The notes under the pieces were generated by a model, which was given only the letters and a program-made list of their open reading frames with translations, made no database searches and was not told where the DNA came from. A program made the position numbers and the translations under genes. Below, piece by piece: positions 8,834 to 37,888 of a DNA stretch of 64,000 nt. Position 1 is the first letter of the stretch. Every line of letters begins with the position of its first letter. The stretch comes from Bacillota bacterium. GTDB taxonomy: Bacteria > Bacillota_A > Clostridia > Lachnospirales > Lachnospiraceae. The DNA lies in the NCBI GenBank assembly GCA_023443625.1, contig JAEZTQ010000017.1, positions 1 through 64,000 on the forward strand, written 5' to 3'.

Positions 8834-9472
8834 ATGGGTAACGAAGTTAAAGTTGACTATAAAAAAGTGTATAAGGATTTGTATTTTCCGAAAAATACAC
8901 CTGCATTAATTGAAATACCTTCAATGAACTTTTTTATGGTAGATGGAAAAGGAAAACCAGCAAGTGAAGAGTATCATAACGCAATGCAAAGCCTTTACAG
9001 TTTCACTTTTTCAATCAAAATGAGTAAAATGACAGGTAATCAACCTTCCGGGTATTTTGAATATGTGGTACCACCGCTGGAAGGGTTATGGAGCTGCGAA
9101 GATGGTCCCTTTATTTTTAGTAAGTCAAATCAATGGATTTGGACATCATTAATCAGACAACCTGAGTTTGTTACACAGGAGGTATTCGAAAAAACTCGTG
9201 AAGAGTTAGGTGTTAAAAAACCTGAGATAGATGTTTCAAAAGTAAGATTTGAAACAATGGAAGAAGGACTCTGTGTGCAGCTGATGCATATAGGACCATA
9301 TGAATTGGAGGAAACCTCCATAGACAAAATATTACAATTTGTTGATGAAAATAATCTAAAAACGGATTTTGAATCAGGAAGGAAACATCATGAGATTTAC
9401 TTATCGGATCCAAGACGTTGCAAACCTGAAAATTTAAAAACAGTAATTCGATATCCGGTAAAAAAAATGTAA
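8834..9472 (+). CDS. GyrI-like small-molecule-binding domain protein
   Basis: The 212-residue soluble protein resembles stand-alone GyrI-like proteins (COG4832 type). It opens with an IEIPSMNFFMVDGKG segment and has the later MHIGPYELEE segment typical of the SHS2-fold effector pocket. Such proteins bind drugs or other hydrophobic ligands. A second GyrI domain is fused to the MerR regulator at the other end of the cluster, so the two may sense or sequester the cluster product. That is an inference. AAGGAAGGAG lies just before the ATG. The gene is followed by the very strong hairpin at 9496-9553. Confidence 0.75.
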   Translation: MGNEVKVDYKKVYKDLYFPKNTPALIEIPSMNFFMVDGKGKPASEEYHNAMQSLYSFTFSIKMSKMTGNQPSGYFEYVVPPLEGLWSCEDGPFIFSKSNQWIWTSLIRQPEFVTQEVFEKTREELGVKKPEIDVSKVRFETMEEGLCVQLMHIGPYELEETSIDKILQFVDENNLKTDFESGRKHHEIYLSDPRRCKPENLKTVIRYPVKKM

Positions 9473-9495
9473 TTGAATAAAACCCATAATTTTAG

Positions 9496-9553
9496 AAGGC
9501 TTATACTACAGCGGGTTGCTAAAGCAACCCACTGTAGTATAAGCCTTTTTTTT
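9496..9553 (+). terminator. Very strong terminator or attenuator before the biosynthetic operon
   Basis: A 24-base arm at 9496-9519 pairs with 9524-9547 around a TAAA loop, with one C/A mismatch, and eight T residues (9546-9553) follow. Only 28 bp separate the T-run from the first biosynthetic start codon. No promoter can fit in that space, so transcription must pass this hairpin. It may therefore work as a regulated attenuator. Confidence 0.9.
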
Positions 9554-9581
9554 GGCTTATATTGTAAAGAAAGGATTAAAA

Positions 9582-10856
9582 ATGGAAAATTATGATATTC
9601 GGTTGTCGGAAAATGAGATTCCCAAAAAGTGGTTAAATGCTTTTGTTGATTTAAAAGTTCCAATACCAGAAGCGAAAAACAGTGAATTTGGTAATCAATT
9701 GAAGGATATGGAAAATATTCGCCTGAAGGAACTTACAAAAGAAGAAAAAAGTAGAGAAAAATGGATGAATATACCAGAAGATATACTGAATGAATATATA
9801 AAGGCGGGACGACCTACTAAACTAACTCGTGCAGTGAACCTGGAGAAATATATTGGCTGTTCATCCAAGATTTACCTAAAGCGTGAGGATTTACTACCAA
9901 CACATAGCTTTAAATTAAATACGGCAATTGCACAAGCTTATTTTGCTGAAAAAGAAAACATCCAGGAATTGGTTACTGAGACGGGAGCAGGACAGTGGGG
10001 AGTATCATTAGCATATGCATGTAGAAAAAGGGATATTAAGGTTAAGATTTTCTGGGCAAAAGCATCAAAACAGCAAAAAGAATTAAGAAGAATAATGACA
10101 GAACTGTTTGGAGCAGAGTTATTTTCATCACCCTGTGCAGACAGCGAAGTTGGCAGAAAAATAATGGAAAAGAATGAATATGGAACAATTGGGTCAGGAA
10201 TCAGTGAAGCAATAGATTATGCATTGCACCATGAAAATTGTCGTTATGTATCAGGTAGTGTTCATAAACATGTTTTAATTCACCAATCCATTATAGGATT
10301 AGAAACTCAAATGCAACTTAAGCAGGCGGGAGTGAAACCAGATGTTTTGGTAGCATGTGTTGGTGGTGGAAGTAATCTCGGAGGGCTTATGCTGCCATTT
10401 ATAATTTCCGATGATTATAGTAATTTGAAATATCAAGGAGCAGAATCTATGGCATCTCCAAGATTTACGAAGGGAGAATATCGCTATGATCATTCGGATC
10501 CTCTGGGGTTAACACCATTAACCTGCTCATATACATTGGGAATGGATTTTGTCCCATCACCAGTTCACACAGGTGGACTCAGGCAACATAATAGTTCACC
10601 AATTCTGGGAGCTTTATATAGAAATTCTATTTTAGACATTAAAGCATATCAACAAGAAGAAATCTTTCAGGCAGGAAGAGTGCTTGCAATGCAGGAAGGA
10701 ATTTTACCAGCACCAGAATCATGTCATGGGGTAAAGGCCGCAATTGATATAGCCATGGCAGCAGAAAAAGAAGGAAGAGAAAAGAATATTGTCGTATGTT
10801 TAAGTGGTAGTGGATACTATGACCTTACCGGTTATAAAGAAGTACTTAACTTTTAA
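9582..10856 (+). CDS. TrpB2-like PLP-dependent enzyme A
   Basis: The 424-residue protein aligns along its length with TrpB2-type tryptophan synthase beta-like enzymes. It has AGRPTKLTRA at 75-84, the PLP lysine Lys111 in PTHSFKLN, catalytic Glu133 in ETGAGQWG, and the phosphate-binding loop GGGSN at 261-265. The lysine context differs from the HKPN/HKIN of tryptophan synthases and recalls SFK of threonine dehydratase-type enzymes. No trpA or other tryptophan gene is near. A beta-replacement or deamination of serine or a related amino acid is plausible. ATG 9582 has AAGAAAGGA upstream; an earlier TTG at 9552 lies within the terminator T-run and is rejected. A paralogue is at 31727. Confidence 0.82.
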   Translation: MENYDIRLSENEIPKKWLNAFVDLKVPIPEAKNSEFGNQLKDMENIRLKELTKEEKSREKWMNIPEDILNEYIKAGRPTKLTRAVNLEKYIGCSSKIYLKREDLLPTHSFKLNTAIAQAYFAEKENIQELVTETGAGQWGVSLAYACRKRDIKVKIFWAKASKQQKELRRIMTELFGAELFSSPCADSEVGRKIMEKNEYGTIGSGISEAIDYALHHENCRYVSGSVHKHVLIHQSIIGLETQMQLKQAGVKPDVLVACVGGGSNLGGLMLPFIISDDYSNLKYQGAESMASPRFTKGEYRYDHSDPLGLTPLTCSYTLGMDFVPSPVHTGGLRQHNSSPILGALYRNSILDIKAYQQEEIFQAGRVLAMQEGILPAPESCHGVKAAIDIAMAAEKEGREKNIVVCLSGSGYYDLTGYKEVLNF

Positions 10857-10871
10857 TGAAAGGATGAAAAA

Positions 10872-11987
10872 ATGATACCACAAATGGAAAAATTTGATGT
10901 CCACTTAGAGGGGAATCCTGCATATTACCTCCTTTATGATGGACAGGATACCTTTACAAAAATATTAAAAGAATACAAACCAGATAAAGTGTTTCTTGTA
11001 GTAGATAAGAGTGTTGCAGAATTAACAAAGGATGAACTATTCCACCTTATTCAGAACTATTTTTCCTGTGAAAAAATTGTTATAGAGTCAAGGGAGAGAA
11101 ATAAGTCGTTTGATAGTCTGAGAGATTTATGTGAGAAGCTGATTAGAGATGGTGTTACCAAGGACTCAATTGTTGTTGCTCATGGAGGGGGTATGATTGG
11201 TAATCTTGCAGGTCTTGCTGCGGCACTTATTTATAGAGGAATCCGATTTGTTGAAGCTCCTACAACTTTTCTTGCACAGACAGATAGTGTCTTAAGCAAT
11301 AAACAAGCTGTTAACAGTAGTGTAGGTAAGAATCACTTTGGTGTATATTATGCTCCCATCTTTATCTATGCTGATGTGAAGTATCTAACAAGGGATGAGC
11401 CTTTTAGGATCAAAAATGGAATAGTGGAGACTATCAAAAATGCTTTGATATCAGATAAAGGCTTGGTACAAGTATTGAAGGAGGTATTACATGGGGATGG
11501 AATATATACAGATGAGGAAATTTATCAATTAGTCAGATTATCTGTAATATCAAAAGCACATATTTTGGCGAAAGATTCTTCAGAAAAACAATACGGAATG
11601 ATTTTAGAATACGGGCATACATTTGGACATGCTATTGAAAAGCTTTCCAATGGGAAAATCATGCATGGTGAAGCAGTAGCTGTTGGTATGATTGTTGCAG
11701 GAAAAATTAGTTTGAGTATGAGTTTACTATCTCAATCAGAATATGACGAAATGGTACAACTAATAAGACACTATGGTGGAATGAATATAAAAATACCAGA
11801 AGAAATAACAGTTGATGACATTATATGTTCAATTCTTACAGATAATAAGAAGAAGGCTAAGGGAATTTGCTATGTTTTATTGAAAGGCATTGGTGAAATA
11901 CATAATCCAAATGGAGACTACTTGGTTACCTTAGAGGATACAATTGTTAGGAAAGCATTGGAAGAATATAAAACTGAGGTGAATTGA
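10872..11987 (+). CDS. Sugar-phosphate cyclase, 2-deoxy-scyllo-inosose synthase-like (DHQ synthase superfamily)
   Basis: The 371-residue protein has the NAD-binding motif HGGG at 104-107 and likely metal ligands Glu186, His249 and His265. Several motifs follow DOI synthases such as BtrC rather than dehydroquinate synthases: GNLAG at 110-114 in place of GDLAG, and DSVLSNKQAVN at 138-148. Lys144 and Glu246 fit the BtrC residues Lys141 and Glu243 that I recall as catalytic, with a constant offset of three. It would convert glucose 6-phosphate or a similar sugar phosphate to a carbocycle. The aminotransferase that would make 2-deoxystreptamine is absent from the window. A divergent DHQ synthase remains possible. 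Confidence 0.75.
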   Translation: MIPQMEKFDVHLEGNPAYYLLYDGQDTFTKILKEYKPDKVFLVVDKSVAELTKDELFHLIQNYFSCEKIVIESRERNKSFDSLRDLCEKLIRDGVTKDSIVVAHGGGMIGNLAGLAAALIYRGIRFVEAPTTFLAQTDSVLSNKQAVNSSVGKNHFGVYYAPIFIYADVKYLTRDEPFRIKNGIVETIKNALISDKGLVQVLKEVLHGDGIYTDEEIYQLVRLSVISKAHILAKDSSEKQYGMILEYGHTFGHAIEKLSNGKIMHGEAVAVGMIVAGKISLSMSLLSQSEYDEMVQLIRHYGGMNIKIPEEITVDDIICSILTDNKKKAKGICYVLLKGIGEIHNPNGDYLVTLEDTIVRKALEEYKTEVN

Positions 11988-12674
11988 TTGGATATCATAA
12001 AACGAATACCAAAGATAAAAGATTGGTTAAGGGAGGATATGGTCGATACCTATATTCAATATATCAATGAACAGATGCTGTATAAGGAAGATTACATATC
12101 AAATCTTATCCAAGAAATTAAGAGAAATCCAGAAGGATGCGTTATGGAATATAGTTCAGGAGTCTCAGGCCTTCTTTATCAGTCTATGTATCCGGAGTAT
12201 GAAGGCAATGTAACTTATGCAGAACATAACCCCATCATATTAAAAAGGGTTAAAGATCATCTGTGTAATCAGAATACTAGTATCTCCTGGAAGCCCGTAT
12301 TATGTAATGAGAACTTGGATCAAATTGAGGATAATACATATTCTCTTATTTATTCTTTTGATTCCTTGCATGATTGTGATGATATTAAAAATAGAATCAG
12401 ACAATTAATTAACAAACTGAAGCCTAATGGACAAGCCTGGATTTATGATTTACGCCGTGATGCTGAAAAAGCCATGCTTGAGCAGGTCATGATTGGATAT
12501 AAGAATTTAGAGCAGATGTCAGACTGGTATCTGAAGAACTTTCTTCTATCATGGAGAGCTTCTTATACCATAGAAGAAGTTGAGAGTGTTTTGATTGAGA
12601 TCCCTTATATCAATTTCAGAGTTGAGAAGGAAAATGCAATGACTTTATCAATCCAAATAATAAAGGAGGGTTAG
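11988..12674 (+). CDS. Methyltransferase-fold protein with degenerate SAM motif
   Basis: The 228-residue protein resembles the class I methyltransferases encoded at 16373 and 22789, including the C-terminal segment SWRASYTIEEVESVL (compare SLHASYSLEEVQALL in the former). Its motif I reads MEYSSGVSGLLYQ instead of the usual acidic-x-Gly-x-Gly pattern, so SAM binding is doubtful. It might act as a cyclase, a partner subunit or an altered transferase. The start is TTG at 11988, with GAGGTG just upstream and no gap after the cyclase gene. Confidence 0.6.
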   Translation: MDIIKRIPKIKDWLREDMVDTYIQYINEQMLYKEDYISNLIQEIKRNPEGCVMEYSSGVSGLLYQSMYPEYEGNVTYAEHNPIILKRVKDHLCNQNTSISWKPVLCNENLDQIEDNTYSLIYSFDSLHDCDDIKNRIRQLINKLKPNGQAWIYDLRRDAEKAMLEQVMIGYKNLEQMSDWYLKNFLLSWRASYTIEEVESVLIEIPYINFRVEKENAMTLSIQIIKEG

Positions 12675-12676
12675 AT

Positions 12677-13534
12677 GTGGAATTATTTGATAAAAAGATT
12701 ATGGTCAGTTTAGTTCAAATGAAGATTTTACCTGGAAAAAAACAGGACAATTTAAACAAGGCATTAAAGTATATTTCCCAAAGTTGTGAAGCTGGGGCAA
12801 AACTAATTGTACTTCCTGAATGCTTTTCAACTGGAATAAATCTGACATCCATGAAGAAAGATGCGGAAGGCATATGCGATAGTGAAGCAATAAAGTCTCT
12901 GTGTAATGTGGCAAAGGAAAAACAAATTTATATATGTGCCGGATTATTAGAAAAAGCAGATGGGAAAATATATGACTCTATTAATTTGATATCACCTGAG
13001 GGAGAAGTAATTTATACATATCGTCGCAGAATACTGTGGAAGATGGAACGAGATTTTTGTGAGGCAGGTACAGAGAAGCCGAGAGTTATAAATACTAGTA
13101 TTGGAAAAATCGGATTTATTCTTGGATATGAAATTTATTTTCCAGAAGCCTGTAGAGAACTATATGAATTGGGTGCGGATATTATTGTATGCCCTTCCAA
13201 TATATTAAAGATGGCCTCTAGTTCAGTAGAGGTCCTATGCAGGGCGAGAGCTGAAGAAAACCATTGTTATTTTCTTTTTGTAAGCTGCCTTGGATATCAC
13301 TTATTCACAAACAGCAATTATATGGGAAATAGTATGGTTACTTGTAATACTGCTTGCCTTATTTATGAAATGGGAGCAAAACATTTGGATTCAACAGGTT
13401 TGCTTGTAAAAGCAGGCGATGAGGAAGGTATTATTACAGCTGGAATTTCTATTAAACACATTGGAAAACATAAAAAGAAAAGTTCTGAATTGGAAGATTT
13501 CCTTGCTTTCAAGGAAAGAGGTGAGCAGTATTAA
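12677..13534 (+). CDS. Nitrilase-fold protein lacking catalytic Lys and Cys (copy 1)
   Basis: The 285-residue protein has the carbon-nitrogen hydrolase fold. Of the Glu-Lys-Cys triad, Glu48 (LPECF) is kept. The lysine position in YRRRIL is Arg117, and the nucleophilic cysteine position in GFILGYEIYFPE is Gly150. It therefore should not hydrolyse amides by the normal covalent mechanism. It may be a scaffold or use the pocket for other chemistry. The start codon is GTG, preceded by AAAGGAGGG. Two more homologues lie at 18469 (also lacking Lys and Cys) and 24135 (intact). Confidence 0.8.
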   Translation: MELFDKKIMVSLVQMKILPGKKQDNLNKALKYISQSCEAGAKLIVLPECFSTGINLTSMKKDAEGICDSEAIKSLCNVAKEKQIYICAGLLEKADGKIYDSINLISPEGEVIYTYRRRILWKMERDFCEAGTEKPRVINTSIGKIGFILGYEIYFPEACRELYELGADIIVCPSNILKMASSSVEVLCRARAEENHCYFLFVSCLGYHLFTNSNYMGNSMVTCNTACLIYEMGAKHLDSTGLLVKAGDEEGIITAGISIKHIGKHKKKSSELEDFLAFKERGEQY

Positions 13535-14288
13535 AAATCAAGTCAATAAGCTTCTTTATTATGTATCAAAAGATTTACTGGAATATGTGAAATACAAAAC
13601 AGCAATCATATCAAATTTACTATTAAGTGTAATTATGGTTAAGTCTTTTGGTGACTTTTCTATGGCAGGCGGATTTGGTAATGATGACTATTATTTATAC
13701 ATACTTCCTGGAATCATTGCCATGGGTATGATGAATAACTGTATTTTCTCAGCCAGCTATAATGTTGCTATGGATAGTGAAAAACATTTAACAGATGATG
13801 TGGTTATATCGGTTTCTTCTTATTTAAATTATATGATTGCAAAGTATATCGGTAATTTTGTAAAAGCACTCATACAATTCCTAGTTGTGGTTTTACTATC
13901 CGTATACTTCTATAACATTTCAATTAACAATTTAGGCTTACTTCTTGGCTTCTTCACCATTGGAACTGTAATGTTTATTTCAATTGGAATGCTTCTTGCA
14001 GCATTCACAGATATCTTGTCACTGGGGGGGCTGGCAAACCTTATTATTGTCCCGTTTACTTATTTTTCAGGCATCTTTTTTCCTGTGACAACATTAGATG
14101 GCGTAATAAAAGTTATTGCTAAGTTTTTGCCTATTACGCCATTTATCGAGACATTACGGTATGCAATAAGTTCTGAAGTGATGTTTGGTAACCTAGGTTC
14201 CCATGTAATTTATATCACTCTTGTGACAGTAATTTTAGTTTTAGTAACTCTTATAAAATATTACAAAAAATTAAAAAGAGGTTATTAA
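13521..14288 (+). CDS. ABC-2 type transporter permease of the cluster
   Basis: The protein of about 255 residues has six predicted membrane spans and ABC-2 character, with the conserved FSGIFFPV segment in the second half. With the ATPase encoded next it should form an exporter for the cluster product or for self-protection. The start is uncertain. GTG 13521 overlaps the nitrilase-like gene and has AAGGAAAG upstream. An ATT at 13530 has GAGGTG at good spacing. An upstream in-frame ATG at 13419 lies deep inside the preceding gene and is unlikely. Confidence 0.8.
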   Translation: MSSIKNQVNKLLYYVSKDLLEYVKYKTAIISNLLLSVIMVKSFGDFSMAGGFGNDDYYLYILPGIIAMGMMNNCIFSASYNVAMDSEKHLTDDVVISVSSYLNYMIAKYIGNFVKALIQFLVVVLLSVYFYNISINNLGLLLGFFTIGTVMFISIGMLLAAFTDILSLGGLANLIIVPFTYFSGIFFPVTTLDGVIKVIAKFLPITPFIETLRYAISSEVMFGNLGSHVIYITLVTVILVLVTLIKYYKKLKRGY

Positions 14289-14289
14289 T

Positions 14290-14934
14290 TTGAAGAGGAT
14301 TGATGTTAAAGATGTAACGGTTATAAGAAAAGATAAGATACTCTGTACCCATGTTAATTTTAGCATTAATGAAAATGATTATGTTGCCCTAATGGGAGCA
14401 AATGGTTCCGGTAAGACTACCCTGCTTAGAGTAATACTGGGTGTCATCCAGCCTTTTACCGGACAAATACTAGTAGAAGGGGAGAAAAACTTCGATAACG
14501 ATAAAACGGGGATAATTCATCAACATGATAGTCTTTCGGATTATTTGACAGTGAAGCAGTATATGAAGTTAGAATGCAAACTAGCTCATGCTGATAAAAA
14601 TTATTGTGAATACTTGGCTGAATATATGAAATTGACAGAATGGATGAATAAGGATATAGCGAAGCTCTCTTACGGTACAAAACGGAAATTATCATTATGG
14701 AAGGCATTGATAAAAAAACCGGAATTACTACTTATGGATGAACCCACCACTGGACTAGATGAGAACATAAAAGAACAGGTATGGGATATTTTATTAGAGT
14801 TAAAGAAAAAAGGAACCACAGCTATTATTGCAACCAATAGTGAGGAAGAGGCAATAAGACTCTGTAATAGGCTATTGTATTTGGAAAATCAGACTATTAA
14901 GGAGAAGAGCTTATTGACGCTGCGGGACAAATAG
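14290..14934 (+). CDS. ABC transporter ATPase of the cluster exporter
   Basis: The 214-residue ATPase has Walker A GANGSGKTTLL (about 36-46), a signature motif in the form LSYGTKRK, and Walker B LLLMDEPTTGLDE. The short length and signature are typical of ATPases paired with ABC-2 permeases. It starts with TTG at 14290, two bases after the permease stop, with AGAGG upstream. Confidence 0.88.
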   Translation: MKRIDVKDVTVIRKDKILCTHVNFSINENDYVALMGANGSGKTTLLRVILGVIQPFTGQILVEGEKNFDNDKTGIIHQHDSLSDYLTVKQYMKLECKLAHADKNYCEYLAEYMKLTEWMNKDIAKLSYGTKRKLSLWKALIKKPELLLMDEPTTGLDENIKEQVWDILLELKKKGTTAIIATNSEEEAIRLCNRLLYLENQTIKEKSLLTLRDK

Positions 14935-14949
14935 AAAGGAATGGTAGAG

Positions 14950-16359
14950 ATGAGTGATTTTTTTTGGAAGGAGTATCCGGAATGTGATCGTGAATATGTA
15001 CGTTGGTATCCTTGTAATGTTCGAGAAATGGATGAAGCAGAGCATTTAAAAAAGGATCAGTATGTATTTTATGTACATATCCCATTTTGCAATAACGTCT
15101 GTAGTTGTTGTCTTTATAATAAGCAGAATACGAAGGGAGAGTTACTGGAGCGCTATCTTGTAGCAATTAAGCAGGAGATAGAAATTTATTCCAGAGATCC
15201 AGCGATTCAAAATGCTATATTTATTGCTGGATATATAGGTGGCGGCACCCCAACAGCGTTATCTAAAGAGCAGTTGAGTGATTTATTGGAGTTTATCAAG
15301 TCTCATTTAAATATTAGAGAATCAGCTCCCATTACAGTTGAAACAACACCCGCAGACATTACTTTAGAAAAAGCCAAGGTTTTATTGGCCCAGGGCGTTA
15401 ACAGAGTTAGTGTTGGTGTTCAGTCTTTTGATGACGTACTACTAAAAAGGATTGGTCGAGCTCATACAGCTAAAAAGGCAATTGAGACTATTGAGATGTT
15501 AAGAGAGGCTGGATTTAAGGAAATCAATATTGATTTGATGTATGCAATGCCAGGAGATTCCATGACGGCATGGAAAAAGACCCTTGATCAGATGGATGAG
15601 TTAAGTGTTGAGTCTGTTTCATTATACTATTATATTCTTTTGCCAGAAAGTAAGCTAACAACTAGGATACAGCAGGGCAGGATCCCAGAGTGTCCTAATG
15701 AGGAGGAAGCTGAGAAGCTTTATATGTATGGAATTAATTATCTGTTATCAAAAGGATATGTAGCGGTATCTCCCAATGATTTTGGCAAGGACAAATCAAT
15801 TGGAGAAGAAAAATGGAATGATGAAGGAGCTGTCAGCTATCTACTAGACAAAGATAAGGGGTTTAAGGCTGCAATGGCTTATACGATGGAACGAACCTCC
15901 TACATATCACATTGTTGGTATAACAATGGGGCTATGTTAGCGTTCGGGGCAGGTGCATATGGATTTATGAAAGATCACATTTATTTTAACCAGCCTTCTA
16001 TAGAGAGGTATATAGAGACTGTAAAGGATAATCATCTTCCGGTAGTAATGGGAGCAGATGTAAAGCTGGATGAGATGATTCGTAGGAATATGATTTTAGC
16101 AGTTAAGCTTCTTTATATTCGTAGAAAAGATTTTATGGATAAATACGGCATCGATATTGGAGAGTATTTTGAAAAGGAAATTAACAAGCTTGTTGAACAA
16201 GGATTGGTTGAACTGACAGGGGATGCACTGATAGTTACTTTCCCGAAGGGGTGGAAATATATCGACAATATCAGCAAGGCATTTTATTCAAAAAGAAACT
16301 ATCGGTTACCGCAGCCAGCGCCAACTAATACAAATTTAATTAAATATTTAGATAATTGA
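14950..16359 (+). CDS. HemN-like radical SAM enzyme 1
   Basis: The 469-residue protein has the radical SAM cluster motif Cys47-x3-Cys51-x2-Cys54 in PFCNNVCSCC, the SAM-binding GGGTPT at 97-102, and a HemN-type C-terminal domain with FGAGAYGF. It opens with WKEYPECDREYVRWYPC, a segment shared with two other homologues here, and ends with a tail containing PKGWKYIDNISKAFY and NYRLPQP. Heme synthesis is unlikely: there are several copies and no heme genes. HemN-like enzymes beside methyltransferases can transfer a SAM-derived methylene group (C10P with C10Q in CC-1065). ATG 14950 is preferred because AAAGGA abuts ATG 14941 but is well spaced for 14950. Confidence 0.85.
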   Translation: MSDFFWKEYPECDREYVRWYPCNVREMDEAEHLKKDQYVFYVHIPFCNNVCSCCLYNKQNTKGELLERYLVAIKQEIEIYSRDPAIQNAIFIAGYIGGGTPTALSKEQLSDLLEFIKSHLNIRESAPITVETTPADITLEKAKVLLAQGVNRVSVGVQSFDDVLLKRIGRAHTAKKAIETIEMLREAGFKEINIDLMYAMPGDSMTAWKKTLDQMDELSVESVSLYYYILLPESKLTTRIQQGRIPECPNEEEAEKLYMYGINYLLSKGYVAVSPNDFGKDKSIGEEKWNDEGAVSYLLDKDKGFKAAMAYTMERTSYISHCWYNNGAMLAFGAGAYGFMKDHIYFNQPSIERYIETVKDNHLPVVMGADVKLDEMIRRNMILAVKLLYIRRKDFMDKYGIDIGEYFEKEINKLVEQGLVELTGDALIVTFPKGWKYIDNISKAFYSKRNYRLPQPAPTNTNLIKYLDN

Positions 16360-16372
16360 AAGGAGAAATTTT

Positions 16373-25300: not shown

Positions 25301-25307
25301 GGATAAT

Positions 25308-26144: not shown

Positions 26145-26196
26145 GGAAGCTGCCTGATAGTAATAACCAGATTCTGCAAGAATGAAAGGTGAGGCA

Positions 26197-31051: not shown

Positions 31052-31737
31052 AGGTTAAGTTGGGAATTGTTGGTTATGGAAGAATGGGTCGTGCTTTAGC
31101 AGGAAGGCTTGTGGGCAAATTTGACCTTTATGCCTGTGATATACGAGAAGACCTAATATATGAGCAAGGTGTTAACAAAGTCGATACAAAAACCTTATTT
31201 AGTGTATGCAGATACATAGTCCTCTGTTTAAACAAAGTAGATATTCAGGAGGTTGTCCTGCAATATAAAAGTTACTGTAATAAAACAACCTATTTAATTA
31301 ATGTTGCTACAGAATCCCATATAGACCAGCTTAATAATTTAGTAAGGGACTGTCCTTATATTCAACCAATAGGAGTAAAAATAATGGGCCAGTACATAGC
31401 AATTGAACATGGTATGCAGTCTGTTATTGTAACAGAGAGTAAAGATGAAAGACTGTTTCAGGTTGTATCAGATGTTTTTTCAACTATAGCACTTGTTATA
31501 AAATACAAAGAAGACATAGTAGGAAAACTAAATCATTGGATTACTAAGAAGGCTATAAGAATGTTGTGTTCGGTATATGAAGAATGTAAGAAGTTCGGGA
31601 TAAAAAGTGAGGTATATGAATTAGCCGCAAAATCAATACTAATAGGCACAATCGAAGAATTTAAAATACCTTCAGGAAATGAATATATTGAAAAAATTAT
31701 GAATGAGATACGGGGTGAGGAGTGTAATGAAGGATGA
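31048..31737 (+). CDS. NAD(P)-binding reductase of the pyrroline-5-carboxylate reductase type
   Basis: The 229-residue protein begins with a Rossmann dinucleotide motif GIVGYGRMGRALAG and continues like the N-terminal domain of ProC with a helical C-terminus. It may reduce an imine or dehydrogenate an intermediate. It is shorter than usual ProC (about 270) and proline synthesis is not suggested by the context. It overlaps both neighbours by a few bases. Confidence 0.62.
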   Translation: MKVKLGIVGYGRMGRALAGRLVGKFDLYACDIREDLIYEQGVNKVDTKTLFSVCRYIVLCLNKVDIQEVVLQYKSYCNKTTYLINVATESHIDQLNNLVRDCPYIQPIGVKIMGQYIAIEHGMQSVIVTESKDERLFQVVSDVFSTIALVIKYKEDIVGKLNHWITKKAIRMLCSVYEECKKFGIKSEVYELAAKSILIGTIEEFKIPSGNEYIEKIMNEIRGEECNEG

Positions 31738-33007
31738 GATATACTATTTGAAAAGAGAAAAACAGCCAGTTAAATGGTATCAAATCTTATCAGATTTTTA
31801 TGAGCCTTTACCACCTTTATTGTATGGAGAAGATGTAAAACTGACGAAGGAAGATCATGATAAAATTCGAGTGAAAGAACTGGCTAAACAGGATATTCAA
31901 GCCACCAAGTGGGTAAATATACCGCAAGAAGTATTGGAAAAATATGAAATGTGTGGGAGGCCGACTCCTTTAATGCGTGCATACTCTTTAGAAGAACATT
32001 TGGGCAATTATGTTAATATCTACATAAAACGAGAAGATCTACTTCCTACACATAGTTTTAAGTTAAATAGTGCCTTGGCACAGGTGTATTATGCAAAAAG
32101 AGAAGGGTTTTTGAAAATTGTATCCGAAACAGGTGCGGGACAATGGGGACTCGCATTGTCTTATGCTGCAAAATTATTCGGAATGAAAGCTGAGATATTC
32201 TGGGTTAAATCATCAAAGAGACAAAAGCCATACCGGGCTGATTGGTGCAACTTATTCGGAACAGAGCTTCACGAGTCTCCATCTAAGTTGACTGAAACTG
32301 GAAAGAACGAATTAAGGAAAGATGTAAATTGCCCTGGTTCTTTAGGAATAGCTATTGGAGAAGCAGTAGAATATACACAAAAACAGCGTGACTGTGCATA
32401 CATCTCAGGGAGTAATCTGCCTCATGTTATTTTACATCAGACTGTTATTGGATTGGAGACGAAAGAGCAATTGAAGCAGATTGGTGTTATGCCAGATCTG
32501 TTCGTTGCCTGCTGCGGAGGCGGAAGCAATCTTGGTGGATTTATTGGGCCCTTCTTATTTGATGAAGAATATAAAAATGCCAATTTTATAGCAGCCGAAT
32601 CCCATGCTGCACCAAGATTATCAAAAGGGGAATATCGTTATGATTATCCGGATCCTTTAGGTATATTGCCAAAAGTAAAAAGTTACACTCTTGGAAAAGA
32701 CTATATGCCTCCTCTTACTCATGCAGGTGGTTTAAGACAGCATAATGGTTCTGCAATCATTGGATGGTTGAAAAATAAAGATATGCTCAGAGCAGAATCC
32801 TTCTCACAAGAGGAAGCACTGCAAGCAGGGAGGCTATATACAAGCTTGTATGGTACTATTCCTGCCCCGGAATCTTCTCATGCACTGGCAGCTGTTATTC
32901 GAAGAGCTTATGAAGCTAAGAAAAAGAATAAAAAAGAAACTATTGTCATGTGTTTATCAGGATGTGGTGTTTTAGATATGCAAGCATATCTTAAAGGAGG
33001 CAGGTAA
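31727..33007 (+). CDS. TrpB2-like PLP-dependent enzyme B
   Basis: The 426-residue paralogue of the enzyme at 9582 has CGRPTPLMRA, PLP Lys112 in PTHSFKLN, ETGAGQWG, CCGGGSNLGG, and TrpB2-type GEYRYDYPDPLG and HAGGLRQHNG. The same unusual PLP lysine context in both copies argues for a common non-tryptophan reaction. ATG 31727 lies inside the end of the previous gene, with GAGGAG upstream. Confidence 0.82.
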   Translation: MKDEIYYLKREKQPVKWYQILSDFYEPLPPLLYGEDVKLTKEDHDKIRVKELAKQDIQATKWVNIPQEVLEKYEMCGRPTPLMRAYSLEEHLGNYVNIYIKREDLLPTHSFKLNSALAQVYYAKREGFLKIVSETGAGQWGLALSYAAKLFGMKAEIFWVKSSKRQKPYRADWCNLFGTELHESPSKLTETGKNELRKDVNCPGSLGIAIGEAVEYTQKQRDCAYISGSNLPHVILHQTVIGLETKEQLKQIGVMPDLFVACCGGGSNLGGFIGPFLFDEEYKNANFIAAESHAAPRLSKGEYRYDYPDPLGILPKVKSYTLGKDYMPPLTHAGGLRQHNGSAIIGWLKNKDMLRAESFSQEEALQAGRLYTSLYGTIPAPESSHALAAVIRRAYEAKKKNKKETIVMCLSGCGVLDMQAYLKGGR

Positions 33008-33008
33008 A

Positions 33009-34892
33009 ATGGAGTTTCTTCAGAATAATGATTTTGAAAAACTATTGGACCAGATAATAAACAAGATGAATCATGATTTGGATAGAACAGAGGAGGATGC
33101 ATTATTAGAATTTGCTCCTTGGGAAAATTTATTAGACAAGCAGTATCTAAAAGGGATTCATCACTGGGCATATTACATTGGAGATTATAAAAAGGAAGAA
33201 ACAATAATTGAGCTGTACCAGTATTTGAATAAAAAGGAAAACATAACGCAGCTATCCTATGGACCGTCCTATATTGCACCAAAATATTATGGAACTCCTG
33301 GCTGGTGGTTTAGTTTTTCCATCAATGGCAAGCAAGTTGAGTTATTTGCAATGAAACAATTTGGAAAATGGGTTAATTATGAAGAGGAAGAGAAGCAGCA
33401 CCTTATGTCTCATTGCGCAATTGAGTTAAAAGGTAGGAGTTATTTTAACTACTGCATTAAGAGGTGGAGAAATATTCCTGGTATAAGTGTATTGATGATT
33501 AGCCAAGAGGATACCTTGGGGCATACCTATGCACATTTTTACAACAGAAAAACAAATAGAGTAGTAGAGTTAATCTATATAAAGACAGATAGAGGAAATA
33601 GTAAGAGAAAGTTTTTTCAACAGGCAATACAGCAAAAGGAAAAAGATAAACAAAACCTTGTGTCGGTAAGAAAAAGCTTTCAATTAAAAAGCGAGGAAAA
33701 GGAAAGCTGGCAAACAAAGCAGCTACAAAATGTTTATAAAAGATATCAAGGTAAACCAGGTTATAACCTGAGAATTGAGGACATCAATAAAGAAAGTATT
33801 AAAACAATTCCATTTATGACGCGACAGATGTTAATGGATGCATATCCGATGAATTTAGCAAGGAAAGATAAAAAGTGCTTGGTAAGATACGGAGAAAGCA
33901 CTGGTACAACCAAAAATCCAATTAGTGCTTATTATACAAGGAATGACTGGCATTATAATAATATGGTTGTTGCAGGATTTTTAAGTGAAATAATAGATGA
34001 AAATGATACTGTAATGATAGTTGTACCATATTCACTTGCTATGGTAGCGCAAGATGTAGATCGTGCTATCGAAGCTTTAAATGCAACAGTTATAGCAGTT
34101 GGGACAATTGGTGAAGCATGTAATATTGAAAGAGTAATATCAATTTTAAGAGCAACACAAGTAACTTCACTGGTCTGTTCGCCAACAAGGGCACTTTATA
34201 TTGCTTATGAAATTAAAAAGGCTGGATATGATATCAGAAAAGATTTTAATGTTACGAAGTTGTTCTGCGTAGGAGAAGGTTCATCTCCGGCAAAAACAGA
34301 AATACTAGAAAGAACTTGGGGCGCAAAGGTATACCCTATGTATGGAATGACCGAAACAAATACCCTTGGGATGCCATGTTCAGGTGGACAGCTGCATTTA
34401 GTGGAAAACAAAGCGTTTTTCGAGATTGTAGATGAGGCAGGAGATGATGTTGGCTTTGATAAAAGGGGGGAGCTTGTAGTCACAACCTATTTTGAAGGAA
34501 TGCCTATGCTACGATATAAAACGGGTGATATCTGCACAATGAAGTCTAAAAGATGCAGCTGTGGCTTAGATATGCCTGTTATAGAACATCATGGAAGAAA
34601 AATAGATATGATTAAAACAAAAAAAGGGGTAATAGCGATTCTTGATATAGAGCAGATTATCTTAAAAGATGCAGAATGCATGTTTTACAGTCTTTCTATG
34701 TCAGAGGATGAATGCATGATAATTGGATTAGCCCTTCATGATCTTGAATCCATTCAGGACAAACTTAAGAAGGATATAGAAGAGAAATTGGATATTCGAG
34801 CCATGATTGTTAGCATAAGTGAAGAAGAAATAGCAGATAGGATTAAGAATATGGTAAAACCATGCCTTGCTGCAATTTATAGTAAGTATTGA
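33009..34892 (+). CDS. Fusion of an N-terminal VOC-like domain with a PaaK-like adenylating domain
   Basis: Residues about 1-200 have two similar beta-rich stretches with His and Glu at positions typical of a vicinal-oxygen-chelate fold (HHWAYYIGD, VELFAMKQF, SHCAIELKG, GHTYAHFYNR, VELIY). This domain call is tentative. Residues about 235-627 are a PaaK-like adenylation domain with YGESTGTTKNP, MYGMTETNTLG and RYKTGDICT. It differs from the paralogue at 29822 by Lys in place of Gly in the P-loop. The whole protein may activate and process an acid in one polypeptide. Confidence 0.7.
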   Translation: MEFLQNNDFEKLLDQIINKMNHDLDRTEEDALLEFAPWENLLDKQYLKGIHHWAYYIGDYKKEETIIELYQYLNKKENITQLSYGPSYIAPKYYGTPGWWFSFSINGKQVELFAMKQFGKWVNYEEEEKQHLMSHCAIELKGRSYFNYCIKRWRNIPGISVLMISQEDTLGHTYAHFYNRKTNRVVELIYIKTDRGNSKRKFFQQAIQQKEKDKQNLVSVRKSFQLKSEEKESWQTKQLQNVYKRYQGKPGYNLRIEDINKESIKTIPFMTRQMLMDAYPMNLARKDKKCLVRYGESTGTTKNPISAYYTRNDWHYNNMVVAGFLSEIIDENDTVMIVVPYSLAMVAQDVDRAIEALNATVIAVGTIGEACNIERVISILRATQVTSLVCSPTRALYIAYEIKKAGYDIRKDFNVTKLFCVGEGSSPAKTEILERTWGAKVYPMYGMTETNTLGMPCSGGQLHLVENKAFFEIVDEAGDDVGFDKRGELVVTTYFEGMPMLRYKTGDICTMKSKRCSCGLDMPVIEHHGRKIDMIKTKKGVIAILDIEQIILKDAECMFYSLSMSEDECMIIGLALHDLESIQDKLKKDIEEKLDIRAMIVSISEEEIADRIKNMVKPCLAAIYSKY

Positions 34893-35785
34893 TGCTTATG
34901 ATAATCTCAAATTTAAGGAAGTTGGATGTTATCTTGGCAACATTGCAAGGAAAATATACAGTAAGCCAGGCAGCAGATATACTAAATGTATCGGAAAGAA
35001 GAATTAAGCAACTTAAAAATAATATAAGACAAGAAGAGTATTGTGCAAATCATAATTTTCAAAGTGAAAAGGCAGTTATTATTTCAGAATGGATGAAGGT
35101 AAAAGAAAAGGACATTAGCTTTATGGAATTTCAAAAAATGTTGCTTGAGTATGGAAATATAAAAGTATCATATGCTTCACTTTATCGTATTTTACAAAAT
35201 GAGAAAATTAGTAGTCCTTGTAAACATCAGAAAAAAGACACACTGGAGGCAGGAACCATATTCCAAGTGTTTTCAAAATCTTATCAATGGTTTGCTGATA
35301 AGAAACAACAATTTTTTTTATATGCATTTTTAGATGTTTCAGGGTGCATTACTGGTATTTACCTAGAGGATTGTGAGCAAATATCAGGATACATGAAAGT
35401 TATGAAGCAGACAATTTTAGAATTTGGTATTCCAGAGACTGTATGCTTTCAAAGAGGAAATAGTATTCCCAGTTCAGAGGATAGTCTGACAACCTATGGA
35501 AAAGAAGGGGTAAATTTAAAAGATATTTTAAAAAAAATGGGAGTATGCATACGTGAATTCTCATTTTGTAATGATAAGAAGTTAAATATGGTTTCACAGC
35601 GACTAAAAAAGGAAATTCCATTATGTTTTATGGAGGAGAAAATATCCAACCTTGTCAATGCCAATAAGTATTTAGAACAATATCGAAACAATTATAATTT
35701 GCCTTTTATAAAACAACTAAATTTTAATAATAGCTTGTTTGTTGAATTGACAGACAAGAAAGAAATTGATCATTGGTTTAGTTAA
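34892..35785 (+). CDS. Transposase-derived protein (ISNCY/IS1202-like) without DDE residues
   Basis: The 297-residue protein has an N-terminal helix-turn-helix (about 18-45, [18 protein letters not shown]) and a region that follows ISNCY-type integrase cores. The three catalytic positions are altered: Phe127 where IDGS has Asp ([10 protein letters not shown]), Gln187 where YSD has Asp, and Met233 where GRVER has Glu. The frame is intact, it overlaps the upstream stop (TGATG), and no insertion-sequence ends are seen around it. A domesticated DNA-binding regulator is likely. The start could also be ATG 34898 or TTG 34889. Confidence 0.65.
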
Positions 35786-35814
35786 TTCTAAAAAGAGAAA
35801 TGGAGGATATAAAA

Positions 35815-36981
35815 ATGAAAAACATATTATTTACATCGGAATCTGTTACAGGGGGACATCCAGATAAGATGTGTGATATAATTTCGGATGCTATACTGGA
35901 TAGTTATTTAAGAGGAGATAAAGACAGTAGAGTGGCATGTGAAGTAGCCGTTACGACTGGGCTAGTAGTCGTAATGGGGGAAATTACATCGAAAGCATCA
36001 ATTGATATCACGGAAGTTGTTCGTAAAACAATCAGGGAAATAGGTTATGAATCAAGTGAATGTGGATTTGATGCAGATACTTGTTCAGTTATACAAGCAA
36101 TTGATAAGCAGTCAACTGATATTTCTTTAGGTGTTAATCGACAAGATAATACTGGAAAAGAAATTATTGGAGCGGGCGATCAGGGCCTTGTATTTGGCTA
36201 TGCAAATTTACAAACAGAAGAGTACATGCCTTTACCAATTATATTGGCACACAAACTTGTGCAGCAACTGGAAAGAGTAAGAAGAGATGGTACTATTTCT
36301 TATCTTTATCCAGATGGTAAATCGCAGGTTACCATAGAGTATGATGATAATAGAAAAGCAGTTCGAATTAATACGGTTGTAATTTCAGCTCAACATCATG
36401 AGAAAGTTAAGCAGGATCAAATATTTGAGGATATAAAGAGGCATGTAATTACTCCTGTGCTACCATCAGAGTTAGTAGATGATAGGATTAGAATTCTGGT
36501 AAATCCAACAGGACGATTTGTAGTTGGAGGACCTCATGGCGACACTGGATTAACAGGAAGAAAGATTATTGTAGACACATATGGAGGATATGGTCGTCAT
36601 GGGGGAGGAGCTTTTTCAGGTAAGGATTATACGAAGGTAGATCGTTCTGCATCATATGCAGCACGTTATCTTGCCAAAAACATTGTAGCATCTGACTTGG
36701 CAGGGGAATGTGAAATTCAGCTTTCATATGCCATTGGAGTAGCTGCACCAATCTCTATCAATGTGAATACATATGGAACTGGAAAAGTCTCAGACAGAGA
36801 AATTGAAGAGGTCATCTTAAAAAACTTTGACTTGTCACCTAGTGGAATTATTGATAAATTTAATCTAAAGAGACCAATTTATAAAAAGACAGCAGCTTAT
36901 GGTCATTTTGGAAGAAGTGATGTACAATTTCCTTGGGAAGAAATTGATTGTGTAAATTTATTTAGAAAGTTACGGGAATAA
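35815..36981 (+). CDS. metK: S-adenosylmethionine synthetase
   Basis: The 388-residue enzyme has the full MetK motif set: [36 protein letters not shown], and [16 protein letters not shown] with the ATP-binding lysines. It makes SAM from methionine and ATP. As the last gene of the cluster it would supply the radical SAM enzymes and methyltransferases. The true housekeeping copy is presumably elsewhere. ATG 35815 is chosen with GGAGG upstream. No SAM riboswitch is visible before it. Confidence 0.93.
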
Positions 36982-37043
36982 TTAATATACTACAAATTAT
37001 ATCTTCCTCTATGAAAAAATATTAAAAAAAATTAAAAAGAGTA

Positions 37044-37075
37044 TTGACCTTCCCCTTTAGGGGAGGGTATAGAAT
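37044..37075 (+). promoter_or_regulatory. MerR-type promoter with operator in a long spacer
   Basis: TTGACC (37044-37049) and TATAGA (37068) or TAGAAT (37070) are 18 or 20 bp apart. The spacer is filled by an inverted repeat, CCTTCCCC then TTTA then GGGGAGGG. An overlong spacer carrying a palindrome is the hallmark of promoters twisted open by MerR proteins. The next gene encodes one, so autoregulation is likely. Confidence 0.85.
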
Positions 37076-37096
37076 AATGAAGAGAGGAAGATTAAG

Positions 37097-37888
37097 ATGT
37101 ACAAAATAGGTGAATTTTCTAAGATAACAATGATATCTGTAAAGGCTTTACGGTACTATGATGAGAAGGGGCTTCTTGTGCCATCCGATAGGAGTGATAA
37201 TCAATATCGAATGTATAACGAAAGGGATTATGAATTAGCACTATTGATCAAAAAGCTTAAAAAGTGTGGATTTACAATTGCAGAAATTAAAGAAGCCTTG
37301 GAACATTGTGATGACAAATTAGAGCTAAATTATATTTTGCATGAGAAAAAAGCTTTTATTACAGAGAATATAAAAAAGGAAATGGAACTTATTAATGTCA
37401 TCGAGAAAATGCTTCTTCCTAGAAAACAGGAGGTTAAAATTATGGAGTATGTATTTGAAACGAAAAATTTTGAAGCTGTAAAAGTAGTGTCAGTCCGTTA
37501 TAAAGGTCAATACAGCGATATGGGAAAATATATCGGAAGCCTTTATAAAGCAGTACAAGGTAAAGCTAATGGTGAACCATTTAGCTGCTATTATGATGAA
37601 GGTTATCAAGAAAATGCAGAGATTGAATTATGTATACCCTTCAGTGGCACTATTACAAGTAGTGAAGTAACAGTTAAACAGTTACCGGCGATTAAAGCAT
37701 TATGTACTAGGCATGTTGGAAGCTATGATACTCTTAATGAGGCATATAAAGCGATTATTGATCATGCTAAAGCTAAAGGGTTAGAGTTAAAAGTACCTTC
37801 AAGAGAAATATATATAAAAGGTCCTGGCATGATTTTTAAGGGAAATGCTGATAAATATATCACAGATATAGTGATCCCCATAGCATAG
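37097..37888 (+). CDS. MerR-family regulator with GyrI-like ligand-binding domain
   Basis: The 263-residue protein has a MerR winged helix-turn-helix at 1-70 (YKIGEFSKITMISVKALRYYDEKG is its start, cited here in part as IGEFSKIT and KALRYYDEKGLL), a dimerisation coiled coil (about 75-115) and a GyrI-like effector domain (about 118-263) ending KYITDIVIPIA. This is the BmrR/TipA-like multidrug-sensing layout. It probably activates its own promoter on binding a small molecule, perhaps the cluster product. AGAGAGGAAG precedes the ATG. Confidence 0.88.
   Translation: MYKIGEFSKITMISVKALRYYDEKGLLVPSDRSDNQYRMYNERDYELALLIKKLKKCGFTIAEIKEALEHCDDKLELNYILHEKKAFITENIKKEMELINVIEKMLLPRKQEVKIMEYVFETKNFEAVKVVSVRYKGQYSDMGKYIGSLYKAVQGKANGEPFSCYYDEGYQENAEIELCIPFSGTITSSEVTVKQLPAIKALCTRHVGSYDTLNEAYKAIIDHAKAKGLELKVPSREIYIKGPGMIFKGNADKYITDIVIPIA

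What the first reader, a model, noticed from the sequence alone, without database searches (positions are those of the whole stretch)
8834..37888. Undescribed natural-product-like gene cluster
About 26 enzyme, exporter and accessory genes run on one strand with overlaps or very short gaps. They combine a DOI synthase-like cyclase, two TrpB2-like enzymes, three HemN-like and one B12-type radical SAM enzymes, four methyltransferase-fold proteins, a BtrH-like protein, two PaaK-like ligases, a decarboxylase, an ABC exporter and MetK. I know of no described pathway with this set. There are no NRPS, PKS or carrier-protein genes and no obvious precursor peptide, so standard cluster-finding rules may miss it.
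Basis: partly seen in the sequence, partly recalled or inferred. Interest (0 to 1): 0.95.

Follow-up and report, generated by a model that had tools for sequence, protein, structure and literature searches.

The report
Anaerobe's DNA-alkylating antibiotic gene cluster
A probably Lachnospiraceae-like anaerobe carries a 28-gene operon, kept gene for gene in Clostridium sp. KNHs205, whose core genes resemble those of CC-1065/yatakemycin-type antitumour antibiotic clusters, so it likely makes a cyclopropane-bearing compound that would damage DNA, with a ring predicted to come from sugar without oxygen-using enzymes.

Summary
In detail: 28 co-directional ORFs (8834-37888), about 98% coding, no PKS, NRPS or carrier protein. 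"No described pathway" does not. [quoted passage not shown] The first gene is a GyrI-like protein whose best solved relative is Lin2189, a proven yatakemycin/CC-1065 cyclopropane hydrolase, with the catalytic residues kept. All 28 genes are colinear in Clostridium sp. KNHs205. Two further cluster types share the core: four Kitasatospora/Streptomyces clusters (same DOI-synthase-like gene and GyrI, plus AlkD-like glycosylase and molybdenum enzyme) and ten Streptomyces/Massilia clusters (AlkD-like glycosylase in 9 of 10). I read it as an O2-independent variant of the CC-1065/yatakemycin kind: a DOI-synthase-like enzyme, isomerase and dehydrogenase replace tyrosine hydroxylation, two TrpB2 enzymes add serine units, ligases/BtrH join amides, HemN+methyltransferase pairs add one-carbon units, at least one probably a cyclopropane. 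Against: the clostridial clusters lack AlkD and the molybdenum enzyme, and only one of three methyltransferases keeps the C10Q-type histidine. The product is inferred. Conserved dead paralogs (HemN and nitrilases without cysteine) are a second unusual feature.

The parts
8778..8806 (+). promoter-like site TTGACA-17-TATTAT upstream of the first gene (consensus match only)
   Evidence: 11 of 12 consensus positions; 11 sites found in 8400-9700 against a shuffle mean of 4.1
8834..9472 (+). g01 GyrI-like protein, predicted cyclopropane hydrolase (self-protection)
   Evidence: only PDB relative by sequence at E <= 0.001 is Lin2189 (3b49, 229 bits; 5x5m, 5x5r); W85, W99, E157, E185, Y187 of Lin2189 all kept
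9552..10856 (+). g02 TrpB2-like PLP enzyme a
   Evidence: PALP, NF009057 507 bits (over cut-off); HSFKLN
10872..11987 (+). g03 DOI-synthase-like carbocycle-forming cyclase
   Evidence: best solved relative BtrC DOI synthase (198 bits) against 162 for the best DHQ synthase; shares EYGHT, KQAVN, GGGxxGN and DNK with BtrC, unlike the KNHs205 AroB
11988..12674 (+). g04 methyltransferase MTa (His at the place of the C10Q-type His)
12677..13534 (+). g05 nitrilase-family protein NITa, catalytic Cys replaced by Gly
13419..14288 (+). g06 ABC-2 permease (true start probably further in)
14290..14934 (+). g07 ABC exporter ATPase
14941..16359 (+). g08 HemN-like radical SAM enzyme a (CNNVCSCC)
16373..17056 (+). 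g09 methyltransferase MTb, nearest the C10Q-type partner (42-45% to the seven Streptomyces type C methyltransferases, 40-41% to the three of Massilia) but Phe at the His place
17069..18463 (+). g10 HemN-like radical SAM enzyme b (CNNVCHCC; lacks the W.EYP N-terminal segment)
18469..19320 (+). g11 nitrilase-family protein NITb, Cys to Gly and Lys to Arg
   Evidence: Gly at the Cys place in all 16 NITb-like relatives aligned
19310..20140 (+). g12 pseudo-HemN: HemN N- and C-terminal parts, no CxxxCxxC, most of the barrel missing
20121..21593 (+). g13 HemN-like radical SAM enzyme c (CNNTCHSC)
21599..22777 (+). g14 BtrH-like acyltransferase (HCET)
22789..23496 (+). g15 methyltransferase MTc (Tyr at the His place)
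23509..24138 (+). g16 CmcI-like O-methyltransferase
   Evidence: PF13578, PF04989
24135..25058 (+). g17 nitrilase-family protein NITc with intact Glu-Lys-Cys
25069..25251 (+). two 89-nt direct repeats with hairpins in the only long gap of the operon (dispersed repeat, probably incidental)
   Evidence: no Rfam match
25308..26144 (+). g18 sugar/inosose isomerase-like TIM barrel
26182..27348 (+). g19 MfnA-like PLP amino-acid decarboxylase
   Evidence: TIGR03812 372 bits (cut-off 299)
27339..28787 (+). g20 B12-binding radical SAM enzyme (CTENCIYC)
28784..29809 (+). g21 zinc alcohol dehydrogenase (threonine/scyllo-inosose dehydrogenase-like)
29822..31051 (+). g22 PaaK-like AMP ligase a
31048..31737 (+). 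g23 NAD-binding reductase-like protein
31703..33007 (+). g24 TrpB2-like PLP enzyme b
   Evidence: three PDB TrpB2-type entries, E about 1e-107
33009..34892 (+). g25 VOC-fold domain (residues 1-about 195) fused to PaaK-like ligase b
34889..35785 (+). g26 transposase-like (ISNCY/IS481-related) DNA-binding protein, kept at the same place in KNHs205 at 35%
35800..36981 (+). g27 MetK, SAM supply
   Evidence: TIGR01034 573 bits
37097..37888 (+). g28 MerR regulator with GyrI-like sensor domain (lacks the hydrolase acid pair)

Best explanation
The 28 genes at 8834-37888 form one operon, conserved gene for gene in Clostridium sp. KNHs205, that shares its core with clusters bearing the hallmarks of the CC-1065/yatakemycin kind and likely makes a cyclopropane-bearing compound that would alkylate DNA. 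Proposed order of steps, all inferred from family and context unless marked: (1) the DOI-synthase-like cyclase g03 closes a sugar phosphate to a cyclohexanone, and the isomerase-like g18 and dehydrogenase-like g21 take it towards a polyhydroxylated aromatic ring without O2; (2) the two TrpB2 enzymes g02 and g24 attach serine-derived alanyl side chains to that electron-rich ring, and the decarboxylase g19, the B12 radical SAM enzyme g20 and the reductase-like g23 shape them towards a pyrroloindole-like unit; (3) the PaaK ligases g22 and g25 activate carboxylates and the BtrH-like g14 (with the one intact nitrilase g17) forms amide links; (4) HemN a/b/c generate SAM-methylene radicals on sp2 carbons and the partner methyltransferases g04, g09, g15 close at least one adduct to a cyclopropane, others perhaps to C-methyl groups; (5) the GyrI-like g01 opens the cyclopropane of any product in the cell, the ABC pair g06/g07 exports it, the MerR-GyrI g28 senses it, and MetK g27 supplies SAM. 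Shown here: gene content, synteny, residue conservation and co-variation with the other cluster types. Not shown: any product or reaction.
For: HemN a/b/c share N-terminal W.EYP..D.E.VR.YP (a and c; b lacks it) and C-terminal PKGW.Y.DNISK.FY with the S. woodyi protein P0046 (37-40% identity; CxxxCxxC at 50/54/57, matching the published C57A position of Swoo_2002; P0046 as Swoo_2002 is my inference) (PMC6050322 passages). MTb is 42-45% identical to the seven Streptomyces type C methyltransferases (40-41% to Massilia's three); all 10 keep the C10Q spacing of 77 between the SAM-motif acid and the His. GyrI g01: Lin2189 is the only solved relative by sequence and E157, E185, W85, W99, Y187 are kept here, in KNHs205 and in 4 of 4 type K clusters (PMC5684135 passages and section 7). 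KNHs205: 28 of 28 genes colinear. Type K, 4 of 4: GyrI, a TrpB2, DOI-synthase-like, TIM, MfnA, B12 radical SAM, ADH, PaaK, BtrH, MTa (only 22-25%), HemN, MTb, NITb, NITc and the VOC domain in one place, with an AlkD-like glycosylase (4 of 4) and Mo enzyme (4 of 4). Type C, 10 of 10: HemN, MTb, NITb, B12 radical SAM, BtrH, ABC pair; AlkD-like in the cluster in 9 of 10. Co-variation: DOI-synthase-like + TIM + ADH in 5 of 5 relatives of that kind and 0 of 10 type C loci (5 of these read over 40-54 kb); the tryptophan-dioxygenase-like protein in 5 of 5 type C regions read over 40 kb or more and in none of the window, KNHs205 or type K. These groups are also clades in the HemN tree, so they are few independent events.
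Against: No AlkD-like glycosylase in the window cluster; KNHs205 has one weak PF08713 match about 516 kb away. No Mo-enzyme homolog at E <= 1e-5 anywhere in KNHs205. The C10Q-type His is Phe in MTb and Tyr in MTc; only the divergent MTa keeps it, and the four type K MTb have Ala (2) or Asn (2); C10Q H138A gave the methylated product, not the cyclopropane (PMC6050322). GyrI-like proteins are common (PF06445 in 14 of 15 genomes and 8 of 14 control genomes, 14 matches in KNHs205), and Lin2189 itself is from Listeria innocua, not known to me as a producer. Type C genomes have no g01-like gene (0 of 10), unlike published c10/ytk. I could not compare with the deposited c10 or ytk sequences. The role of the DOI-synthase-like enzyme in ring formation is inference. 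The dioxygenase-like Pfam match (Massilia) is just under its cut-off (33.0 against 34.9 bits) and its Streptomyces homolog gave no Pfam hit.
Confidence: 0.62

Rival explanations
1. The cluster makes an amide-linked aromatic compound of the same scaffold kind, but the HemN/methyltransferase pairs add C-methyl groups only and there is no alkylating cyclopropane; g01 serves against compounds of others.
For: MTb and MTc lack the C10Q-type His and loss of that His gives methylation in C10Q (PMC6050322); a HemN-like enzyme has been linked to methylation (CoeI, PMC9714029 passages); no AlkD-like glycosylase in the cluster.
Against: MTa keeps the His; g01 keeps the catalytic residues and is the first gene of the operon in both clostridial clusters and next to the cluster in 4 of 4 type K clusters.
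Confidence: 0.22
2. The DOI-synthase-like enzyme does not make the aromatic ring; the ring comes from tyrosine or another aromatic, and the cyclitol is a substituent or side product.
For: CC-1065 units come from tyrosine, serine and methionine (PMC9570651 passage); type K hosts are aerobes (recalled), so O2 avoidance alone does not explain the gene.
Against: DOI-synthase-like, TIM and ADH genes occur together and where the dioxygenase-like gene is missing; no hydroxylase family was hit among the 28.
Confidence: 0.3
3. An aminocyclitol (butirosin-like) pathway, from DOI synthase plus BtrH.
For: g03 is nearest BtrC and g14 has the BtrH domain.
Against: No sugar aminotransferase and no glycosyltransferase among the 28; HemN, TrpB2 and PaaK have no part in that pathway (recalled); BtrH-like genes recur in all 14 non-clostridial relatives, 10 of them without a DOI-synthase-like gene in the stretch read.
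Confidence: 0.04
4. A decaying or silent cluster, in view of the proteins without catalytic residues.
For: Pseudo-HemN and two nitrilases without Cys.
Against: All 28 frames open; the same loss recurs in other phyla (NITb Gly in 16 of 16 relatives) and pseudo-HemN is kept in five other sequences, KNHs205 among them, at 48-56%, so the losses are old and maintained.
Confidence: 0.05

Closest known systems
CC-1065 (c10) and yatakemycin (ytk) clusters of Streptomyces (spirocyclopropylcyclohexadienone family)
   Same: C10P-type HemN with methyltransferase partner, GyrI-like hydrolase. By way of the type C relatives, which carry published c10/ytk marks: TrpB-like, MfnA-like decarboxylase, nitrilase, PaaK, BtrH and B12 radical SAM proteins shared with the window.
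   Different: Three HemN (one in each type C locus read); DOI-synthase-like cyclase, isomerase and dehydrogenase; two TrpB2; no AlkD-like glycosylase, no Mo enzyme. Compared through relatives, not with the deposited c10/ytk genes.
Cryptic Shewanella woodyi cluster with Swoo_2002 (PMC6050322)
   Same: HemN-like enzyme proven to replace C10P; 37-40% to the three window enzymes if P0046 is Swoo_2002.
   Different: P0046 groups with the type C enzymes, outside the clade of the window's three paralogs.
Lin2189 / YtkR7 / C10R6 cyclopropanoid cyclopropyl hydrolases
   Same: 229 bits to Lin2189, acid pair and aromatic cage kept.
   Different: Y58 to Phe, F154 to Tyr; activity untested.
2-deoxy-scyllo-inosose synthase BtrC
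   Same: Best solved relative of g03; shared positions that differ from AroB.
   Different: No aminocyclitol genes around it; substrate unknown.

Membership tests
CC-1065/yatakemycin-type clusters | C10P/YtkT-type HemN-like radical SAM enzyme with CxxxCxxC | tested here: met
   three copies, 37-40% to P0046; motif intact
CC-1065/yatakemycin-type clusters | C10Q-type methyltransferase with catalytic His | tested here: inconclusive
   MTb nearest but Phe at that place; MTa has the His but is distant
CC-1065/yatakemycin-type clusters | GyrI-like cyclopropane hydrolase in the cluster | tested here: met
   g01, catalytic residues kept
CC-1065/yatakemycin-type clusters | AlkD-like DNA glycosylase (YtkR2/C10R5) | tested here: not met
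   none among the 28; KNHs205 only a weak match about 516 kb away
CC-1065/yatakemycin-type clusters | Molybdenum catechol-dehydroxylase-like enzyme | tested here: not met
   no match in the window and none in the whole KNHs205 genome at E <= 1e-5
CC-1065/yatakemycin-type clusters | Spirocyclopropane product that alkylates adenine | not testable with these tools
   needs isolation of the product
Cyclopropanoid cyclopropyl hydrolases (GyrI subfamily) | E157/E185 pair and aromatic cage with W85 and Y187 (Lin2189 numbering) | tested here: met
   the MerR-GyrI g28 fails it
Cyclopropanoid cyclopropyl hydrolases (GyrI subfamily) | Hydrolysis of yatakemycin/CC-1065 | not testable with these tools
   needs an assay
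2-deoxy-scyllo-inosose synthases | Closer to DOI synthase than to DHQ synthase, with DOI-type active-site replacements | tested here: met
   198 against 162 bits; EYGHT, KQAVN, GGGxxGN; reading of these places as active-site positions is recalled
Butirosin-type aminocyclitol pathways | Cyclitol aminotransferase and glycosyltransferase | tested here: not met
   none among the 28

The most novel reading that the evidence does not exclude
Strict anaerobes of the Lachnospiraceae build a DNA alkylator of the CC-1065 kind entirely without O2, with its aromatic ring made from sugar by a DOI-synthase-like cyclase and serine added by two TrpB2 enzymes, and with three HemN/methyltransferase sets that install more than one reactive cyclopropane, so that one molecule could join two DNA strands; inactive HemN and nitrilase relatives act as scaffold subunits of the assembly line.
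Probability: 0.2. Interest if true: 0.95.

Novelty: new variant of a known kind. Interest (0 to 1): 0.86.

Why it matters
CC-1065, the duocarmycins and yatakemycin are among the most potent DNA alkylators known (PMC8626424 abstract, seen), and the producers named in the passages I saw are Streptomyces. A clostridial branch would mean that anaerobes can make such genotoxins, would give an O2-free route to the scaffold, and makes an open question testable: how the benzodipyrrole core arises, since two gene sets (DOI-synthase-like against dioxygenase-like) exclude each other across the clusters read. It also gives a genome-mining rule (C10P-type HemN C-terminal motif next to nitrilase, TrpB2 and BtrH) for clusters without PKS or NRPS, and a set of conserved catalytically dead paralogs to explain.

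Tried and rejected
Rejected: butirosin-like aminocyclitol (no aminotransferase or glycosyltransferase); heme metabolism (the three HemN carry the terminal motifs of, and are 37-40% identical to, the Swoo_2002-like enzyme; in the tree the single HemW was set as outgroup, so the tree itself is no test of this); RiPP precursor (no Pfam/NCBIfam RiPP hit among the 28; ATG-started frames of 18 codons or more in the gaps over 40 nt were found only in the 249-nt gap, which KNHs205 lacks). A riboswitch in the 25059-25307 gap: no Rfam match at gathering score, only a chance-level one, and the hairpin recurs 13 times in one and 3 times in another genome (3 of 397 genomes matched, KNHs205 with one 3-mismatch copy), so a dispersed repeat.


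Full report
WHAT IS THERE. Window 8834-37888 holds 28 ORFs, all on the + strand; 23 of the 27 junctions are overlaps or gaps of 20 nt or less, and about 98% of the stretch is coding (98.7% with overlaps counted twice). No PKS, NRPS or carrier-protein domain was hit. A promoter-like site (11 of 12 consensus positions) lies at 8778-8806.

CONSERVATION. A protein search with HemN c gave 3369 hits at E <= 1e-20 among 7361 candidates, of which 120 were listed. A scan of the GTDB species genomes with an alignment of 26 HemN C-terminal pieces used one short peptide pattern; 30 stretches matched and 15 loci were confirmed. That is a lower bound: P0046 (S. woodyi) and P0026 (Paenibacillus), known, were not among them. 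In Clostridium sp. KNHs205 all 28 genes are present in the same order and strand (35-87% identity); in the 40 kb read there the window's flanks match nothing but the cluster's own ABC ATPase. In samples around KNHs205, HemN c at E <= 1e-60 was found only in KNHs205 itself: 1 of 397 family, 1 of 15 genus, 1 of 391 class genomes (in the family and class searches a few candidates per genome were scored), so the cluster is rare. The neighbouring glycoside hydrolase gene is nearest, among named hits, to Mobilitalea sp. (80%), Anaeromicropila herbilytica (73%) and Lachnospiraceae MAGs (69-71%); unnamed hits reach 83% (120 of 7985 hits listed). This is my only evidence on the host.

THE OTHER TWO CLUSTER TYPES. 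Type K (Kitasatospora aureofaciens, Kitasatospora sp. A2-31, Streptomyces olivaceoviridis, Streptomyces sp. Ru62; 4 loci) carries GyrI, one TrpB2, DOI-synthase-like, TIM isomerase, MfnA, B12 radical SAM, ADH, PaaK, BtrH, MTa (22-25%), one HemN, MTb, NITb, NITc and the VOC domain in one place, plus an AlkD-like glycosylase (4 of 4; two copies in two of them), a Mo enzyme (4 of 4) and an MFS transporter (4 of 4). Type C (7 Streptomyces, 3 Massilia) carries HemN, MTb, NITb, B12 radical SAM, BtrH and the ABC pair in 10 of 10, an AlkD-like glycosylase in the cluster in 9 of 10 (not in G008), and, in the five read over 40 kb or more, a Mo enzyme, UvrA-like protein and tryptophan-dioxygenase-like protein in 5 of 5. 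The other five type C loci were read over 16-20 kb only, so absences there say little.

WHY THIS POINTS TO CC-1065/YATAKEMYCIN. The published marks of those clusters are the cyclopropanase pair C10P/C10Q (PMC6050322, passages read), the GyrI-like hydrolases YtkR7/C10R6 (PMC5684135, passages and section 7), the AlkD-like glycosylases YtkR2/C10R5 (PMC8626424, passages) and a putative molybdenum dehydroxylase (PMC7028382, passages); the units come from tyrosine, serine and methionine (PMC9570651, passages). The S. woodyi protein P0046 has its third motif cysteine at residue 57, as the C57A mutant of Swoo_2002, the proven C10P substitute; it is 37-40% identical to the window's three HemN. In the type C methyltransferases the SAM-motif acid and the SS(L/M)H(R/L/K)W histidine are 77 residues apart in 10 of 10, as D61 and H138 in C10Q. 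The window's GyrI-like g01 has Lin2189, a solved hydrolase of yatakemycin and CC-1065, as its only PDB relative by sequence (229 bits) and keeps the acid pair E157/E185, W85, W99 and Y187; so do KNHs205 and the 4 type K proteins. The MerR-GyrI g28 does not, which fits a sensor.

WHAT IS DIFFERENT. The window and KNHs205 have no AlkD-like glycosylase in the cluster (one weak match about 516 kb away in KNHs205) and KNHs205 has no Mo-enzyme homolog at E <= 1e-5. They have three HemN. In a FastTree tree the paralogs a, b, c fall in separate clades (support 0.77, 1.00, 0.97), and three proteins each listed on one contig of 26,518 bases, which I take to be the same contig, fall one in each (P0006, P0009, P0005), so the triplication looks old. 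DOI-synthase-like, TIM and ADH genes occur together in window, KNHs205 and 4 of 4 type K, and in none of 10 type C loci; the dioxygenase-like gene shows the reverse in 5 of 5. These groups are also clades of the HemN tree, so this is a small number of independent events. The cyclase g03 is nearer to BtrC (198 bits) than to any solved DHQ synthase (162 bits), and at EYGHT, KQAVN and GGGxxGN it agrees with BtrC against the AroB of KNHs205. My inference is that a sugar-derived ring replaces the tyrosine/DOPA ring, which in an anaerobe avoids O2, and that the second TrpB2 (46.8% to the first) supplies the second serine unit. Against a simple O2 argument: type K hosts are aerobes (recalled) and have one TrpB2 in the cluster.

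DEAD PARALOGS. NITc keeps Glu, Lys and Cys; NITb has Gly for Cys in 16 of 16 relatives aligned; NITa has Gly in both Clostridia and Ser in 9 of 9 type C. Eight further type C sequences nearest NITc also lack the Cys. The fourth HemN relative g12 has lost the cysteine motif and the middle of the barrel but is kept in five other sequences, KNHs205 among them, at 48-56%; longer homologs P0127 and P0128 keep the barrel without the motif, P0029 keeps both, and P0040 is a fusion of a motif-less and an intact HemN. Partner or scaffold roles are inference.

VOC DOMAIN. The first 199 residues of g25 match no Pfam family. They align with sequences from 4 type K and 3 Massilia clusters with invariant His, Glu, His, Glu; in two type K clusters my ORF call makes it a stand-alone protein of 207 residues. 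The predicted structure (mean pLDDT 85, pTM 0.81, 8 sequences) finds methylmalonyl-CoA epimerases first (Foldseek probability 1.00, E 4.8e-5, 13% identity, TM 0.57 by target and 0.43 by query).

RESULTS AGAINST. MTb and MTc lack the C10Q-type His, and the four type K MTb have Ala (2) or Asn (2) there; loss of that His gave methylation in C10Q, so some or all pairs may methylate. GyrI-like proteins are frequent (14 of 15 genomes, 8 of 14 control genomes). Type C genomes have no g01-like gene (0 of 10), although c10 and ytk have one. The dioxygenase-like Pfam match is under its cut-off. No direct comparison with c10/ytk was possible.

LITERATURE. The listings of searches showed no report of such a cluster in Clostridia; of the papers listed I opened six (PMC6050322, PMC5684135, PMC9570651, PMC7028382, PMC8626424, PMC9714029), in passages or one section. 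One search returned mostly general gut papers; search 53 on KNHs205 gave one listing, which by title and abstract start is about mouse gut microbiota. The library lacks most subscription papers; the c10 and ytk cluster papers were seen only as references.

VERDICT. Real, conserved, a new variant of the CC-1065/yatakemycin kind by gene content; the product is unproven.

Noticed in passing
window 25069-25251: Two 89-nt direct repeats (92%) with perfect hairpins in the only long gap of the operon; the hairpin recurs 13 times in one and 3 times in another genome (3 of 397 family genomes matched), RNA fold z-score -4.3, no Rfam match.
   Followed up: partly
window 34889-35785: Transposase-like protein (ISNCY/IS481-related) kept between PaaK b and MetK in KNHs205 at only 35% identity while these two neighbours stay at 56% and 76%; may be a domesticated regulator.
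   Followed up: partly
window 19310-20140 and proteins P0029, P0127, P0128, P0040: A graded series from intact HemN to HemN without cysteines to HemN without most of the barrel, plus a fusion of dead and intact HemN.
   Followed up: partly
L029:2-2968 (Streptomyces sp. NRRL B-1347) and L033:5408-8593 (Massilia sp. BJB1822): UvrA-like proteins with a UvrA DNA-binding domain inside type C clusters, in L029 with a flavin-reductase domain at the end of my ORF call; possible second DNA-repair self-protection.
   Followed up: no
L018-L025 (type K clusters): A weakly TatD-like gene (under the Pfam cut-off) between the TIM isomerase and MfnA in 4 of 4 type K clusters, without a match in the window, KNHs205 or the type C stretches searched.
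   Followed up: no
G007:C45:400636-401871 (Massilia sp. BJB1822): A MetK gene (55% to g27) lies beside the type C cluster of Massilia too; it may be a recurring companion or simply that genome's housekeeping copy.
   Followed up: no
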